The notes under the pieces are model-generated. The model saw nothing but the letters and a program-made list of their open reading frames with translations, did not search any database and was not told where the DNA came from. This document shows positions 19,412 to 32,821 of a DNA stretch of 33,209 nt, one piece after another. Position 1 is the first letter of the stretch. Each line of letters starts with the position of its first letter. The position numbers and the translations under genes are program-made. The stretch comes from Sphingobacteriia bacterium (GTDB lineage Bacteria > Bacteroidota > Bacteroidia > Chitinophagales > Chitinophagaceae), in NCBI GenBank assembly GCA_947460365.1, contig CANHJH010000009.1, positions 1 through 33,209 on the forward strand, read 5' to 3'.

Positions 19412-19456
19412 AAAAAGGCAAAGCCCATCTAATTGAATAGATGGGCTTTGCCTTTT
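19412..19456. terminator. terminator hairpin, contains core AAAGCCCATCTAATT-GAA-TAGATGGGCTTT
   Basis: Long inverted repeat AAAAAGGCAAAGCCCATCTA...TAGATGGGCTTTGCCTTTT just after the 18522 CDS. Confidence 0.85.
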
Positions 19457-19491: not shown

Positions 19492-19499
19492 TAAATTTG
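19492..19499 (+). promoter_or_regulatory. possible -7 element TAAATTTG just upstream of the zeta-like gene
   Basis: Exact TAnnTTTG ending 5 nt before the ATG; no clear -33 box. Confidence 0.35.
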
Positions 19500-19504
19500 C
19501 AAAT

Positions 19505-20080
19505 ATGACTAACAAAGATCTTTATATAATTGCTGGTTGTAATGGAGCTGGAAAAACGACAGCTTCTTTTACTATTTTACCAGAAATTATTGACTGTAAA
19601 GAATTTGTAAATGCAGATGAAATAGCAAAGGGCTTATCACCCTTTCAACCAGAAAAAGTATCCTTTGAAGCTGGTAGAATAATGTTGAATAGAATAAATG
19701 AATTATTGAAACTAAAAGAAAGTTTTGCATTTGAAACAACTTTATCTACGAAAAGTTATAGACAAAAAATCATAAATGCTAAACAAAATGGATATACAAT
19801 AACTTTACTTTTCTTTTGGCTTCAAAGTATAGAATTAGCGAAAGAACGAGTAAAAACAAGAGTATTGGAAGGTGGGCACAATATTGACCCGGAAATAATA
19901 GAAAGGCGTTATTATAAAGGAATTAAAAATCTATTTGAAATTTATTTACCAATTGTTGATGGCGCATTAATTTTTGATAACTCAATTGGAAAACACATGC
20001 TTTTAGCACAAAAAACAATTGATGGGAAATTAAATATTATAGACACAATAAAGTTTAACGAGTTAAAAAATAAACAATGA
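19505..20080 (+). CDS. zeta toxin-like P-loop kinase/AAA family protein
   Basis: LYIIAGCNGAGKTTASFTILPE (Walker A), FVNADEIAKGLSPF, FETTLSTKSY, LFFWLQSIELAKERVKTRVLEGGHNI. Confidence 0.88.
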   Translation: MTNKDLYIIAGCNGAGKTTASFTILPEIIDCKEFVNADEIAKGLSPFQPEKVSFEAGRIMLNRINELLKLKESFAFETTLSTKSYRQKIINAKQNGYTITLLFFWLQSIELAKERVKTRVLEGGHNIDPEIIERRYYKGIKNLFEIYLPIVDGALIFDNSIGKHMLLAQKTIDGKLNIIDTIKFNELKNKQ

Positions 20081-20226
20081 CAACTGTTGAAAAACAAATT
20101 GAACAGAAAAATAAAATTCTCCTAGGACTTGAAAAGGTGTATGAAAAACTTATTGAGTTTAAAAAATCAAAAAAAACAGATCTTGTTGTTATGAAAGACA
20201 ATAAAATTGTTAAAATAAAACCTTGA
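20077..20226 (+). CDS. 49-aa ORF overlapping the zeta-like gene (ATGA); candidate antitoxin/partner
   Basis: ATG at 20077 overlaps the zeta-like TGA at 20078-20080; translates as MTTVEKQIEQKNKILLGLEKVYEKLIEFKKSKKTDLVVMKDNKIVKIKP. Below the cutoff of the supplied ORF list. Confidence 0.65.
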   Translation: MTTVEKQIEQKNKILLGLEKVYEKLIEFKKSKKTDLVVMKDNKIVKIKP

Positions 20227-20315: not shown

Positions 20316-20639
20316 CTAGTCTACAAATGTTTCCTGTATAACAGACTTGACTTTGTAAATTTCTTTATTGTGTAAGAAATCAAATAATTTTACTATTCGT
20401 ACTCTATCAATTGTTCGAATTTGATCCAATACAATCCAACTTTTGATGTTGTTATGTTTTACCTCTACTCTGGTTGGATAAGATTTGGAACTACTTGTAA
20501 TGGGAGCTATTACAATAGTTTGTAAATACTTATTCATTTCATCAGGAGAAATAACCACACAGGGGCGAGTCTTTTTCATTTCACTGCCGATAGTTGGGTC
20601 GAGGTTTACTAAAACAATTTGGTATTGTTTTATTTCCAT
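20316..20639 (-). CDS. MazF/PemK-like endoribonuclease toxin
   Basis: IKQYQIVLVNLDPTIGSEMKKTRPCVVISPDEMNKYLQTIVIAPITSS. Confidence 0.95.
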   Translation of the reverse strand: MEIKQYQIVLVNLDPTIGSEMKKTRPCVVISPDEMNKYLQTIVIAPITSSSKSYPTRVEVKHNNIKSWIVLDQIRTIDRVRIVKLFDFLHNKEIYKVKSVIQETFVD

Positions 20640-20875
20640 TCTTCAAAGTTTTCATCTTCAAAAATATCAGACATTAGTAATTTGTCATCACCATTCTCGT
20701 GCATTTTCTTAAAAGCTTTTTCCCAACCATTTCTTGAAGAGGTCTTTGGTTTTAGAATAATGCAGTCTTTTTCGAGGATAAGTTCTATTGAATCCTGAAT
20801 GTTGTATTTTTCAATGAGGGTTTTTGATAATCTTATTCCTCTGGAGTTTCCGATTGATATAATTGGTATGTTCAT
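20630..20875 (-). CDS. MazE/AbrB-like antitoxin
   Basis: MNIPIISIGNSRGIRLSKTLIEKYNIQDSIELILEKDCIILKP; overlaps the mazF-like start by 10 nt. Confidence 0.93.
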   Translation of the reverse strand: MNIPIISIGNSRGIRLSKTLIEKYNIQDSIELILEKDCIILKPKTSSRNGWEKAFKKMHENGDDKLLMSDIFEDENFEEWK

Positions 20876-27396: not shown

Positions 27397-30300
27397 ATGA
27401 TCAGTACCAACACTTCCTTTAGTTTCATTCATCATTCAACTAAAGTTCGCTTAATATGCGTAATAGTTGGTTGGCTGATTCAATGTGTTGTTTTTGGTCA
27501 GGGTATTGCTCCCTTGCAACTTACTACGCAGTTTCAGCCACCGTATAGCAGCAACATCAACGATTATATCACCGCTGGGTCGGAAAAGCTGCGCCTGATA
27601 GTTTTACAGCGCGATTTAACCCAGGCCAACTACCGGTTTTATTTGCGGATGGAGTTGAGCGTAAATGGCAATGTGTTGTTTAGAACACCCGCCGGCTGGG
27701 TGCCAAACGAGTTGATTAATATTTTACCGGGCACGCCTACCATTTTAGATGGCACGCAGTTGCAAACCTATTTTGATGCCAACAATTTGGAGTTTGTAGG
27801 ATATAGCAGAGAGCAATACATCCGCACGGGTAATTTGCCGGAAGGCTTTACTACTATCTGTTTTACGGCGTATGATGCGGGTAGACCAGAAGTAAGTGTG
27901 AGTCACCCGGCATGTGGCATGTATTACCTCACTTTATCGGATCCACCGATGTTGGCAATGCCCACTTGTGGTAGTGATGTATTGGCACGCACTCCGCAGC
28001 AAGTTGTATTTAATTGGATAGCCATGGGGATGGGTAAAATAAGTGCCACGCCTACCCAATACGAGTTCAGTTTGTATGAGAACAGAGATGGCCGCAACCC
28101 CAATGAGGTGGTAGAAAGTTTGCGCCCCATCTACACGCAACAAACTTCTGCTACGATGATGGTGTACGGTATGACCGAACCCATGCTTACGGAGGGGATG
28201 CAATACGTGTGGCGGGTGCAGGCCATAGATGATTTAGGAAAAGCAGCATTTAAAAACAATGGGTTCAGTACCCCATGTACGTTTACGTACAAAAGTGCGG
28301 ATCAATACAATTGGCAAGAAGCACCTGCAATAAAGCTGCGTGCCGATGTGTTGAACCACGAGCGGGTAAAGCTGGTGTACAACTGGGATAAGGCCCTGCC
28401 GTACGACGAATATTTTGTAGAGTTCCACAAGCCCGGAAAGGAAAACGCCTGGTTTTCTGTAACGAGATCTGATACGGTGTACCATTTGGTGAACTTAGAA
28501 GAAGACATGCAGTACGAGGCGCGGGTAACGGGTATAAAAGGCGTCAACAAAGGCAAGACCAGTGAAACGGTGCGATTTAGGACTACTAAAAAGAAGGTAG
28601 CCAACTGCAAAGAAACACCGAGTGTGCTGGCCACTTACAATGGCAGACCGTACACTAGGGCAATGAAGAACGACCTGATAAAGTTTGGTGATTTTGAGTT
28701 GACGATCAACCAGCTGCAAAAGTTGCCGGAGCCGGGCTGGTACCGAGGCACAGGTAATGTGAAGGTAGATTTTATGGCGGGGATGCTGTTTAAAGTAAAG
28801 TTCGAGAATTTGCAGATAGACGATCGGTTGGAGGGCACCGCCGGTGAGTTGGTATTCATGAGAGAGGGGATGGAAGCGTGGAAGGAGCAGGTGAAAAGCG
28901 TGGAGGAGGTGGTGAAAGAATTGGTTAAAAATGTGCAACAATTATTAAAGCATTATACGGGAACGGAAAGTGATAAAAAAGAGATTGCCGCAGCACAAAA
29001 ACAGGTAAATGAACAATACGAGCTGTTGTTTAATAGTCCGTATTTAGCCCAACCAACAAAAGATAGTTTAAAGCAAATGCAAACAAAAGCCAGGGAGAGT
29101 TGGGATGCACTGGCGAAAGGAAGAAAATGTACTGAAACAGAAAAAGTTGTAGAGAATAAAAGTAAAGGTCCGTATATTTATAATGATTATTTGGGAGACG
29201 AATATAGTTGTTATACCAATCAGGTTGAACAAGAATTGGAAGAAATCGAGTCAGGAGTTAATACAATAGCTTCCGAGAAAGCAGAAGGGTTGGATTGTTA
29301 TTGCAATCAAAGCCCAACGATAGCAGATTACCTATTAAAATTAAATCCATTTTCTGGTGAATCACCCTGCGTGTTTGTGCAAAAGGCATTAAAGCGAATA
29401 AAGGAGTCTGTGGGAGATCAGGAATTTAGTTTTATTACATCAAGGGAAACGGAGGCAAATCAATTGATTAGTGAAACGGAGTGTTTAAGTATAATGGGAG
29501 AGGAGATTAAAAAAACGAGGATCATATATTTTACGGAACAATTGCAGCAAATGGGAAAGAGTAGTTATTCCTTTCCTTTTAATAAAAACGACTTGCAAGA
29601 TTATGCATACAAAGGTGATGCAAAAAATCAAAGAGGCTTGATACATTATAACAAAAAAGGTATTTCAGACTTTATGATTTTGATAGATGAAGAAGATGAT
29701 GCGAAGTTTGAAAAACAGCGTGAAGTGTTGAAAAAGTATTTGGGAATTGGGGGAGGGGGATATATAGTTAAACCAAAATATTCTGTAGCAATTGGCAGTG
29801 TTCCAATAGGGGGTTTACAAATTACACAACAAGGAATTGATTTCATAACTTATCACGAGGAAGGAAAAAATCCAACCTTGCATGTATATAATGACTTTAA
29901 ATCATCTAAAAGTAAGTATTGTAATGAACATTATGAATACGATATGAATAATAATCTAATTGGTATTAAATCTGGTCATAACACCCATGCAAAGTGGTCC
30001 AGTCGAAAATGTATTGATGATAGTCATGTAGGAATTATTAAAGATAAAAGAGGATATGGTAATCCTACAATTGGATGGGGGCATTTAATTACAACTGAAG
30101 CTGAGTTGAAAAGGTTTTGTATAACAAAGGATGCAAAAATTACTTTAGAAACAGCGAATATTCAATTGCAAGATGAATTTAATGAAGTTACCCGTCAATT
30201 GAAAAATGCATTACCTAATATTTCTTTATCACAGTGCCAATTTGATGCTTTAATGAGTATTGTGTTTAATAGAGGTATTGGTTGTGAAAGGTGCCCTAAA

Positions 30301-30474
30301 CATCCAAATGGTTCAGCATTTAAAGGGTCTAAGCTGTATAACAAATTAAATAATGGAGTAAATTTAGATAATTCAGAATATGCTACACTAATTATAAATG
30401 ATGGTTCAAAACTTGCAGGAACTGCAAGGAGAAAGGACGAGGCTGATTTATTTAATAATTGTAAATATAGATAG
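27397..30474 (+). CDS. secreted multidomain protein: signal peptide, FN3-like domains, helical stem, pre-toxin region, C-terminal GH24 (T4-type) lysozyme domain; candidate polymorphic toxin
   Basis: N-terminal hydrophobic signal; FN3-like DEYFVEFHKPGKENAWFSV...YEARVTGI...SETVRFRTTKK; C-terminus GIDFITYHEEG...GYGNPTIGWGHLI...LSQCQFDALMSIVFNRG...ARRKDEADLF. Confidence 0.85.
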   Translation: MISTNTSFSFIHHSTKVRLICVIVGWLIQCVVFGQGIAPLQLTTQFQPPYSSNINDYITAGSEKLRLIVLQRDLTQANYRFYLRMELSVNGNVLFRTPAGWVPNELINILPGTPTILDGTQLQTYFDANNLEFVGYSREQYIRTGNLPEGFTTICFTAYDAGRPEVSVSHPACGMYYLTLSDPPMLAMPTCGSDVLARTPQQVVFNWIAMGMGKISATPTQYEFSLYENRDGRNPNEVVESLRPIYTQQTSATMMVYGMTEPMLTEGMQYVWRVQAIDDLGKAAFKNNGFSTPCTFTYKSADQYNWQEAPAIKLRADVLNHERVKLVYNWDKALPYDEYFVEFHKPGKENAWFSVTRSDTVYHLVNLEEDMQYEARVTGIKGVNKGKTSETVRFRTTKKKVANCKETPSVLATYNGRPYTRAMKNDLIKFGDFELTINQLQKLPEPGWYRGTGNVKVDFMAGMLFKVKFENLQIDDRLEGTAGELVFMREGMEAWKEQVKSVEEVVKELVKNVQQLLKHYTGTESDKKEIAAAQKQVNEQYELLFNSPYLAQPTKDSLKQMQTKARESWDALAKGRKCTETEKVVENKSKGPYIYNDYLGDEYSCYTNQVEQELEEIESGVNTIASEKAEGLDCYCNQSPTIADYLLKLNPFSGESPCVFVQKALKRIKESVGDQEFSFITSRETEANQLISETECLSIMGEEIKKTRIIYFTEQLQQMGKSSYSFPFNKNDLQDYAYKGDAKNQRGLIHYNKKGISDFMILIDEEDDAKFEKQREVLKKYLGIGGGGYIVKPKYSVAIGSVPIGGLQITQQGIDFITYHEEGKNPTLHVYNDFKSSKSKYCNEHYEYDMNNNLIGIKSGHNTHAKWSSRKCIDDSHVGIIKDKRGYGNPTIGWGHLITTEAELKRFCITKDAKITLETANIQLQDEFNEVTRQLKNALPNISLSQCQFDALMSIVFNRGIGCERCPKHPNGSAFKGSKLYNKLNNGVNLDNSEYATLIINDGSKLAGTARRKDEADLFNNCKYR
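29340..29760 (+). repeat. 421-bp direct repeat, copy A (pre-toxin region of the 1025-aa protein)
   Basis: Aligns without gaps to 31549-31969 (offset 2209), about 9 mismatches counted by eye. Confidence 0.97.
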
Positions 30475-30476
30475 GA

Positions 30477-31553
30477 ATGGAAATCAAATATTTATTTATC
30501 TTCTTTTTTTTTATTTCTACTCAAACATTTTCCCAAAAAGAAATTTTGGTAGGAGGGAAAAAAATACAAATGGAATTAGTAGACAGCAATAAATTTGATA
30601 TAAAAGGAGTATGGAAAATAGTTGATCAAAAATATTTTTATGATGATGGTGAAATTAGTGACAATAAATGGGATAGTTTAGATAAAGGAAATCCCGTTTT
30701 TATTTCTGATAGCATGATCTATGCATGTACACATACATTATTTTCAAATTTTGCCGCAAATCCTTTTTTTAAATATGATTACTTTTATTCGTTTTCTGAA
30801 GGAGGGGATTTTTTTAATCAGTTTAGCGATAGTGTATTACATATTGCCATTTGGGCAAAAGGCGATTGGGAAAAATTTGGTAAGAATATCGATCCAGTAT
30901 CTACATACGATGCATATGTACTAAATAATAATTATATTGTTATTTCTAGTAATAATTCTTTTAGATATTTAGAAAGAATTACAAAGCCTACAGGGGATGA
31001 AGGGTGGAAAAAAATTAATGATTATACAGCAATATATTTAAATGATTTTATCGATGACATTCGCTTACTAGTGCCTAATTTAAAAATGAATCGAGATAAA
31101 TTTATAGAATATATTTTTTTTCCAAAATTTAAGTGTAACGATCCCAAATTAGTATTAAAAAATTTATCTTATGATGAGCTGAAAAAAAATAGTGAACCAA
31201 GAAGTGTATTATATAAGAATTTAAATTTGACTAATAAAACCCTGAAGGGTTATTTATCTATAGATAAACTTCAATCTGATGTTTTTACCATTAATCAGGG
31301 ATCTGAATTTTGTAAAGGATCTTATGCAAAATTCTTATGGCGAATAGTTTCTGATACCACTACTTTAAGTAAAACAATTCAAATCGAAAAAAGCACCATT
31401 TATACCTCCCCCAACATTCCCACCAAAATGTATTTAGTAAAATTTGATGAAGTAGAAGTAATCGCTGAAAAAGACAATTGGCTGCATATTAAATATTATG
31501 GTAAAAAAATAGTGGAAGGCTGGATTCGGAAAAAGGATACGGAGTTTCATTAA
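30477..31553 (+). CDS. secreted hypothetical protein with C-terminal SH3-like domain; candidate immunity protein for the GH24 toxin
   Basis: Signal peptide MEIKYLFIFFFFISTQTFSQ; starts 2 nt after the toxin stop; C-terminal SH3b-like STIYTSPNIPTKMYLVKFDEVEVIAEKDNWLHIKYYGKKIVEGWIRKKD. Confidence 0.7.
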   Translation: MEIKYLFIFFFFISTQTFSQKEILVGGKKIQMELVDSNKFDIKGVWKIVDQKYFYDDGEISDNKWDSLDKGNPVFISDSMIYACTHTLFSNFAANPFFKYDYFYSFSEGGDFFNQFSDSVLHIAIWAKGDWEKFGKNIDPVSTYDAYVLNNNYIVISSNNSFRYLERITKPTGDEGWKKINDYTAIYLNDFIDDIRLLVPNLKMNRDKFIEYIFFPKFKCNDPKLVLKNLSYDELKKNSEPRSVLYKNLNLTNKTLKGYLSIDKLQSDVFTINQGSEFCKGSYAKFLWRIVSDTTTLSKTIQIEKSTIYTSPNIPTKMYLVKFDEVEVIAEKDNWLHIKYYGKKIVEGWIRKKDTEFH

Positions 31554-31969
31554 ATCCATTTTCCGGTGAATCACCCTGCGTATTTGTGCAAAAGGCATTA
31601 AAGCGAATAAAGGAGTCTGTGGGATATCAGGAATTTAGTTTTATTACATCAAGGGAAACGGAGGCAAATCAATTGATTAGTGAAACGGAGTGTTTAAGTA
31701 TAATGGGAGAGGAGATTAAAAAAACGAGGATCGTATATTTTACGGAACAATTGCAGCAAATGGGAAAGAGTAGTTATTCCTTTCATTTTAATAAAAACGA
31801 CTTGCAAGATTATGCATATAAAGGTGATGCAAAAAAGCAAAGAGGCTTGATACATTATAACAAAAAAGGTATTTCAGACTTTATGATTTTGATAGATGAA
31901 GAAGATGATTTGAAGTTTGAAAAACAGCGTGAAGTGTTGAAAAAGTATTTGGGAATTGGGGGAGGGGGA
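31549..31969 (+). repeat. 421-bp direct repeat, copy B (start of orphan toxin cassette)
   Basis: Near-identical to 29340-29760; begins at the TAA stop of the upstream candidate immunity gene. Confidence 0.97.
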
Positions 31970-32821
31970 AATGTCGATAAAGTTATAAACAAAAAAAACA
32001 AAAACTCTTTTACTATAACATTAGAACAAATGAAACAAATTTTTACTAATGCAAAAGAGGAAAATTTACGAAGAATGTTGATTTATATAAATAAATATTG
32101 TGGAGATGTAAATATAAATACTCCATTACGCATGGCTCATTTTTTAGCTCAAGTGGGTCATGAGTCAGGTCAATTTTCATCATTTATAGGAACAAATGGG
32201 GAGAGTGGGTGTTATACGAAATCAAATAAAAATTGGTCAATATTTTTTTCATTAACATGGAAAGAGCCCCCATTTAGTAGTAATTGTATAAGTAATAATA
32301 ATTTAAGAGCCCCAACAGATAGGTCTGAAACAAGATATGGAAGGGTTAAAAAATTGAAATGGCATAATATAAATGAGGTACCTGATGAATATATTTATAA
32401 TGGGAAGAACAGTAGTGAAATGACTAAAAGAATGTTAAGTTTAATGTATTGTTGTGAAGGCGGGAATGGCTGTGTAAATACTGAAGATGGGTATAAATAT
32501 AGAGGTCACGGAATTATGCAATTAACTTGGAAAAATACATACATTAAATTTGATAAATGGTTAAAATCAAACTATCCTGAAACTTATCAAGATGTTGTTA
32601 CAACTCCCGATTTAGTGGCTACAAATGAAGAAATAAGTGTTTTGTCTGCATTGTGGGAATGGGATGATAAAAATCTAAATAAGTTTGCTGATAAAGTGTT
32701 AATAGAGTCGAAAGACGATGATGAAAATTTTAATTCCTTAACTAAGAAAATTAATACAGGTACAGTTGATATTGATAAAAGATTCAGTTTGTTTAAGCGG
32801 GCAATAAATATATTATTATGA
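31586..32821 (+). CDS. orphan toxin C-terminal module: pre-toxin region plus GH19 chitinase/endolysin-like domain (no signal peptide; likely a silent cassette)
   Basis: RMAHFLAQVGHESGQFSSF, YRGHGIMQLTWKNTYIKFDKWL are GH19-like; N-terminus is a GTG inside the repeat and no ATG lies upstream in the open frame. Confidence 0.8.
   Translation: MQKALKRIKESVGYQEFSFITSRETEANQLISETECLSIMGEEIKKTRIVYFTEQLQQMGKSSYSFHFNKNDLQDYAYKGDAKKQRGLIHYNKKGISDFMILIDEEDDLKFEKQREVLKKYLGIGGGGNVDKVINKKNKNSFTITLEQMKQIFTNAKEENLRRMLIYINKYCGDVNINTPLRMAHFLAQVGHESGQFSSFIGTNGESGCYTKSNKNWSIFFSLTWKEPPFSSNCISNNNLRAPTDRSETRYGRVKKLKWHNINEVPDEYIYNGKNSSEMTKRMLSLMYCCEGGNGCVNTEDGYKYRGHGIMQLTWKNTYIKFDKWLKSNYPETYQDVVTTPDLVATNEEISVLSALWEWDDKNLNKFADKVLIESKDDDENFNSLTKKINTGTVDIDKRFSLFKRAINILL

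What the first reader, a model, noticed from the sequence alone, without database searches (positions are those of the whole stretch)
19505..20226. Zeta-like kinase followed by an unlisted 49-aa overlapping ORF
The ATG of a 49-aa lysine-rich ORF (20077-20226) overlaps the zeta-like stop as ATGA. It was too short for the supplied ORF track. In canonical epsilon-zeta systems the antitoxin comes first; here the only candidate partner is downstream and does not resemble classical epsilon.
Basis: partly seen in the sequence, partly recalled or inferred. Interest (0 to 1): 0.6.

Follow-up and report, generated by a model that had tools for sequence, protein, structure and literature searches.

The report
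Zeta-like kinase with downstream antitoxin-like partner
A small toxin-like kinase gene is followed, overlapping by four bases, by a tiny gene whose conserved partnership with the kinase in dozens of bacteria, including three natural gene fusions, suggests a toxin-first toxin-antitoxin pair with an uncatalogued antitoxin family.

Summary
A 191-aa Zeta_toxin-family kinase (19505-20080) overlaps a 49-aa ORF (20077-20226) by ATGA. The small ORF is a real gene: homologs sit in the same position in 88 de-duplicated Bacteroidota loci with an intact kinase, and on cyanobacterial plasmids, under purifying selection in close pairs (dN/dS 0.02-0.28). Across 395 genomes it co-occurs with the kinase (48 of 56; Fisher 1e-38). 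Three loci fuse the two in one ORF, kinase first. AlphaFold2 gives one long helix plus a beta-hairpin. No Pfam, NCBIfam, PHROG, PADLOC or PDB match was found. Divergent zeta-like kinases carry a related helix-hairpin partner upstream, so gene order changed rarely. In 38 of 91 kinases, the window's included, the -7 promoter box abuts the start codon, predicting a leaderless toxin mRNA. Most likely this is a type II toxin-antitoxin module in toxin-antitoxin order whose downstream protein binds and blocks the kinase. Toxicity, binding and substrate are untested; the UDP-GlcNAc motif of classical zeta is absent, and the nearest solved fold is AvrRxo1, which works with a downstream antitoxin. Verdict: new variant of a known kind.

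The parts
19492..19499 (+). TAAATTTG, match to the Bacteroidota sigma-A -7 box TAnnTTTG; the 8-mer starts 13 nt before the kinase ATG, so the predicted transcript starts about 1 nt before it (leaderless)
   Evidence: sequence; same offset in many homologs, 38/91 kinases against 4/137 other genes; box at -12 to -5 of the start site per PMC9723704. Transcript start itself not measured.
19505..20080 (+). zeta-like P-loop kinase, 191 aa, candidate toxin; Walker A 11-GCNGAGKT-18, D38, E77, R115, R119 and H125 conserved
   Evidence: Pfam Zeta_toxin E 4e-10; alignments A2/A5; AlphaFold2 pLDDT 88.7; Foldseek to AvrRxo1-ORF1, zeta, PezT
20077..20080 (+). ATGA stop/start overlap of the two genes
   Evidence: sequence; overlaps of 4 to about 17 nt in most homologs
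20077..20226 (+). 49-aa partner, candidate antitoxin: helix 3-32, strands 36-40 and 43-47
   Evidence: conserved family A1/A4; purifying selection; AlphaFold2 pLDDT 91.7; natural fusions to the kinase

Best explanation
This is a two-gene type II toxin-antitoxin module in toxin-antitoxin order. The zeta-family kinase is the toxin and phosphorylates a small nucleotide-type molecule that is probably not UDP-GlcNAc. The 49-aa helix plus beta-hairpin protein is the antitoxin: it is translated from the overlapping ATGA, binds the kinase as it is made and blocks its active site. The kinase mRNA probably starts at its own start codon (leaderless), which may keep toxin translation modest. Shown here: the gene pair, its conservation, selection, linkage, three natural fusions and the promoter position. 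Inferred: toxicity, binding, neutralisation, substrate and any effect on translation.
For: Zeta_toxin domain with conserved kinase residues. Best solved folds include toxin-antitoxin kinases: AvrRxo1-ORF1 TM 0.77, zeta 0.69, PezT 0.64; bacterial polynucleotide kinase is at 0.65. 88 de-duplicated intact pairs in fixed order and close overlap, against five intact kinases not scored with a small ORF, of which one is a fusion and one ends at a contig edge. Genome co-occurrence p = 1e-38. Low dN/dS in close pairs and correlated divergence (Mantel r 0.76). Three in-frame fusions, kinase then partner: L082 E 5e-11, L086 E 2e-7, L186 E 7e-7. 27 broken kinases keep an intact partner and 17 partners persist with no kinase nearby, the direction expected if the partner is harmless and the kinase is not. 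A related helix-hairpin partner lies upstream of divergent zeta-like kinases (hhalign score 34.4; best of 100 column shuffles 13.3). AvrRxo1-Arc1 is a tested zeta-like pair with a downstream antitoxin (PMC4938570).
Against: No toxicity or binding data. The decay asymmetry is weak once gene length is allowed for: 27 to 3 gives p = 0.11, and 44 to 3 with orphans gives p = 0.008; the loci are not all independent. Intact kinases without a recognised partner: L139 is clean; L184 and L192 have overlapping ORFs the profile does not recognise. The partner has no recognised DNA-binding domain, so autoregulation is not evident. The Mantel correlation also reflects shared inheritance.
Confidence: 0.78

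Rival explanations
1. The pair is a two-subunit metabolic or repair kinase: the small protein is an activating or substrate-binding subunit rather than an inhibitor.
For: The fold is also close to bacterial polynucleotide kinase (TM 0.65); strict linkage and fusions fit an obligate subunit equally well; the substrate is unknown.
Against: The partner outlives the kinase in 27 broken and 17 kinase-less loci, odd for a subunit with no other role; patchy distribution (56 of 395 genomes) and plasmid carriage suit an accessory system.
Confidence: 0.12
2. The pair is a specialised defence module (abortive infection): the kinase is triggered by a phage and the partner is a sensor or gate, not a plain addiction antitoxin.
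For: In the window a MazF-like toxin with a MazE-like partner lies just downstream on the other strand. On Synechocystis pSYSG the kinase lies next to restriction-modification and DUF4433/macro genes, on a plasmid described as carrying a defence island.
Against: PADLOC has no model that hits either protein; flanking genes in the window are ordinary metabolism. It differs from the leading view mainly in trigger, not mechanism.
Confidence: 0.07
3. Chance or relic: the small ORF is non-coding and the kinase is ordinary.
For: None beyond its short length.
Against: Homologs, selection, synteny and fusions.
Confidence: 0.01

Closest known systems
epsilon/zeta and PezAT (PF06414 zeta toxins with epsilon or PezA)
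   Same: Zeta_toxin-family P-loop kinase; Walker A lysine, catalytic Asp (D38) and active-site Arg conserved; adjacent small partner; fold match 1gvn TM 0.69, 2p5t TM 0.64
   Different: The antitoxin is downstream; it is a helix plus hairpin of 49 aa with no match to epsilon or PezA; kinase much shorter, without the GTXR UDP-GlcNAc motif (E77-T-T-L instead)
AvrRxo1-Arc1 of Xanthomonas and environmental homologs
   Same: Best fold match of the kinase (TM 0.77); toxin gene first, small antitoxin second (PMC4938570); not a UDP-GlcNAc kinase
   Different: AvrRxo1 is about 420 aa and Arc1 98 aa; only 16-17% identity in the kinase fold; the 49-aa model finds no credible structural match in the PDB, Arc1 included
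Rv0366c-Rv0367c, non-canonical PezAT of Mycobacterium tuberculosis
   Same: Short zeta-family kinase of about 197 aa with the same active-site pattern (GPNGAGKS, Asp36, Glu75, Arg116, His122) and no GTXR motif (PMC6362051)
   Different: Antitoxin is upstream, 129 aa, with a predicted ribbon-helix-helix DNA-binding part
EzeT of Escherichia coli
   Same: Zeta kinase and inhibitory part joined in one polypeptide, as in the three fusions found here
   Different: In EzeT the inhibitory part is N-terminal (as described in PMC4963859); here the partner is C-terminal and of another family

Membership tests
Zeta_toxin (PF06414) | profile match above the curated cut-off | tested here: met
   39.9 bits against 22.3, E 4e-10; all 14 diverse homologs match
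Zeta_toxin (PF06414) | conserved Walker A and catalytic Asp/Arg | tested here: met
   Walker A G11, G14, G16, K17, T18 and D38, E77, R115, R119, H125 invariant in the 23 rows of A2
epsilon/zeta toxin-antitoxin system | UDP-GlcNAc-binding GTXR motif | tested here: not met
   The position reads ETTLS in the clade; motif defined in PMC6362051
epsilon/zeta toxin-antitoxin system | antitoxin of the epsilon/PezA family, upstream | tested here: not met
   Partner downstream and no family or fold match
AvrRxo1-Arc1 | zeta-like kinase followed by its antitoxin gene | tested here: met
   Gene order; fold TM 0.77; that the second gene is an antitoxin is inferred
AvrRxo1-Arc1 | antitoxin homologous to Arc1 | tested here: inconclusive
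   No sequence or Foldseek match to the deposited complex, but a 49-aa query is insensitive
type II toxin-antitoxin system | two adjacent co-oriented genes with a small partner protein | tested here: met
type II toxin-antitoxin system | toxin inhibits growth and partner neutralises it by binding | not testable with these tools
   needs expression and pull-down; fusions are indirect support

The most novel reading that the evidence does not exclude
A previously unnamed antitoxin family (long helix plus beta-hairpin, 45-90 aa) neutralises a large branch of short zeta-like kinases that do not target UDP-GlcNAc. The same antitoxin fold sits downstream in one set of kinase lineages and upstream in others, and toxin output in the downstream order is limited by a leaderless mRNA.
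Probability: 0.45. Interest if true: 0.68.

Novelty: new variant of a known kind. Interest (0 to 1): 0.55.

Why it matters
Databases label these kinases 'zeta toxin family protein' and leave the partner as 'hypothetical protein' or unannotated, so a widespread toxin-antitoxin module in Bacteroidota and cyanobacteria would be half invisible. The pair gives a concrete, cheap test of whether short zeta-like kinases are toxins at all, what they phosphorylate if not UDP-GlcNAc, and how a toxin-first operon avoids poisoning its host; the natural fusions are ready-made material for structure work.

Tried and rejected
Pfam, NCBIfam, PADLOC and PHROGs gave nothing for the 49-aa protein; scattered weak hits of single family members (Phd/YefM, CbiG_N, DNA gyrase C) are not shared and were rejected. 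PDB sequence and fold searches with the small protein gave no credible match. Plasmid tblastn with the small protein itself found nothing. The idea that decay asymmetry alone proves toxicity was dropped after length weighting. A search for a conserved upstream small ORF in the window's clade found none. No paper in the library holds the term COG4185, and no held paper was found describing this pair.

Full report
Observation. The kinase runs 19505-20080 (191 aa) and the small ORF 20077-20226 (49 aa), sharing ATGA. The kinase is a genuine Zeta_toxin-family protein (PF06414, E 4e-10, above the curated cut-off) and also matches AAA_33. The 49-aa protein matches nothing in Pfam, NCBIfam, PADLOC or PHROGs. 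The genome holds one copy of the kinase.

The small ORF is a gene. In 200 genomes of the same family 65 have a kinase homolog. Of the 29 closest loci besides the window, 27 show a homologous 43-65 aa ORF overlapping or directly following the kinase stop; L012, whose kinase is interrupted, also has it, and L030 ends at a contig edge. The same arrangement is annotated as 'zeta toxin family protein' plus 'hypothetical protein' on plasmids of Parabacteroides, Geminocystis, Nostoc and Synechocystis. After widening the survey to class and phylum and removing duplicates, 88 loci have an intact kinase and an intact small ORF. In the same 395 class-level genomes, 56 have the kinase, 65 the small protein and 48 both (Fisher p 1e-38). 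Of the eight kinase genomes missed by that profile search, five do carry a diverged small ORF when the locus is read (G646, G654, G669, G753, G789); G382, G711 and G798 remain. dN/dS of the small ORF in the ten most similar pairs for which it could be computed runs from 0.02 to 0.28, and 99% of 394 pairs have pN below pS.

What the partner looks like. AlphaFold2 with 36 homologs predicts helix 3-32 and a beta-hairpin 36-40/43-47, mean pLDDT 91.7. The family pattern is a helix with a nearly invariant Gly (G17 here), then LVV..(D/N)GKI..(I/V)(K/P)(A/P). No PDB sequence or fold relative was found.

Physical partnership. Three loci encode kinase and small protein as one ORF in the order kinase-partner: L082 (tail E 5e-11 to a free-standing partner), L086 (E 2e-7) and L186 (E 7e-7). 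L082 comes from a fragmented assembly, where a single-base error could join the frames; L086 and L186 come from better assemblies. 27 loci have a broken kinase with an intact partner and 17 have an intact partner without a detectable kinase. This is the direction expected for a toxin and its antitoxin, but the kinase is four times longer, and after length weighting 27 to 3 gives p = 0.11, or p = 0.008 with the orphans. I treat it as supporting, not decisive. Intact kinases with no recognised partner are L139, where another gene starts directly after the kinase, and L184 and L192, which have overlapping ORFs the profile does not recognise.

Relation to zeta kinases with an upstream partner. More divergent zeta-like kinases in the same family and in other phyla have a small gene upstream instead. 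Twelve partners of such kinases (eleven upstream ones, plus the downstream partner of Persephonella) align to a helix-hairpin pattern (A6). A profile comparison with the window's partner family gives probability 90, score 34.4, against a maximum of 13.3 in 100 column shuffles and 9.9 reversed; without two intermediate rows it is 28.5, and without the Persephonella row as well 28.4. On the kinase tree gene order needs only 2 changes against 16.7 for shuffled labels, though deep branches are poorly resolved and several are long. So one partner family probably serves both orders, with rare swaps.

The kinase. AlphaFold2 gives pLDDT 88.7. Foldseek ranks AvrRxo1-ORF1 first (TM 0.77), with bacterial polynucleotide kinase (0.65), zeta (0.69) and PezT (0.64) following. 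Walker A, D38, E77, R115, R119 and H125 are conserved, matching the pattern described for Rv0366c (PMC6362051). The GTXR UDP-GlcNAc motif is absent, so the target is probably another small molecule (inference).

Promoter. The Bacteroidota -7 box TAnnTTTG lies 13 nt before the kinase ATG in the window (19492-19499) and within 17 nt of the start in 38 of 91 homologs, against 4 of 137 other genes in the fetched loci (p 6e-14). In Flavobacterium the box lies at -12 to -5 of the transcript start and leaderless mRNAs are 5.5% of the total (PMC9723704); in Bacteroides thetaiotaomicron about 3.7% of 5' UTRs are under 10 nt (PMC7366714). The kinase mRNA is therefore predicted to be leaderless in the window and in a large share of homologs. 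What this does to toxin output is not known.

Comparison and novelty. Classical epsilon/zeta membership fails on gene order, antitoxin family and the UDP-GlcNAc motif; membership in the Zeta_toxin protein family holds. AvrRxo1-Arc1 is the closest working precedent for toxin-first order (PMC4938570). On Synechocystis pSYSG a published survey lists five neighbouring genes (sll8001 to ssl8005) as toxin-antitoxin-related but failing its criteria (PMC4963859); by position these probably include the kinase and partner seen in L035 (my inference). I found no held paper that tests the pair. Verdict: new variant of a known kind, with an uncatalogued partner family; function inferred at about 78%.

Noticed in passing
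window 20316-20875, - strand: A PemK/MazF-like toxin (107 aa, E 1e-29) with a weak MazE-like 81-aa partner lies immediately downstream, convergent with the kinase pair: a second toxin-antitoxin module next to the first.
   Followed up: partly
window 19413-19456: A long inverted repeat (aaaaggcaaagcccatct...agatgggctttgcctttt) ends the upstream gene, so the kinase pair is most likely its own transcription unit.
   Followed up: no
L069 1366-3083, L072 1-1713: A relative of the small partner sits directly before a type I restriction HsdM-like gene without a kinase, and in L072 is joined in frame to it.
   Followed up: partly
L035: On Synechocystis pSYSG the kinase pair lies between a nucleotidyltransferase gene and DUF4433/macro-domain genes, beside a type I restriction S subunit.
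   Followed up: no
L199 1500-2525: Two tandem small-partner genes with no kinase nearby.
   Followed up: no
window 28400-32500: The protein at 31586-32821 repeats a stretch of the 1025-aa protein at 27397-30474 (QKALKRIKESVG...YLGIGGGG) almost unchanged, a partial duplication seen in the ORF list.
   Followed up: no
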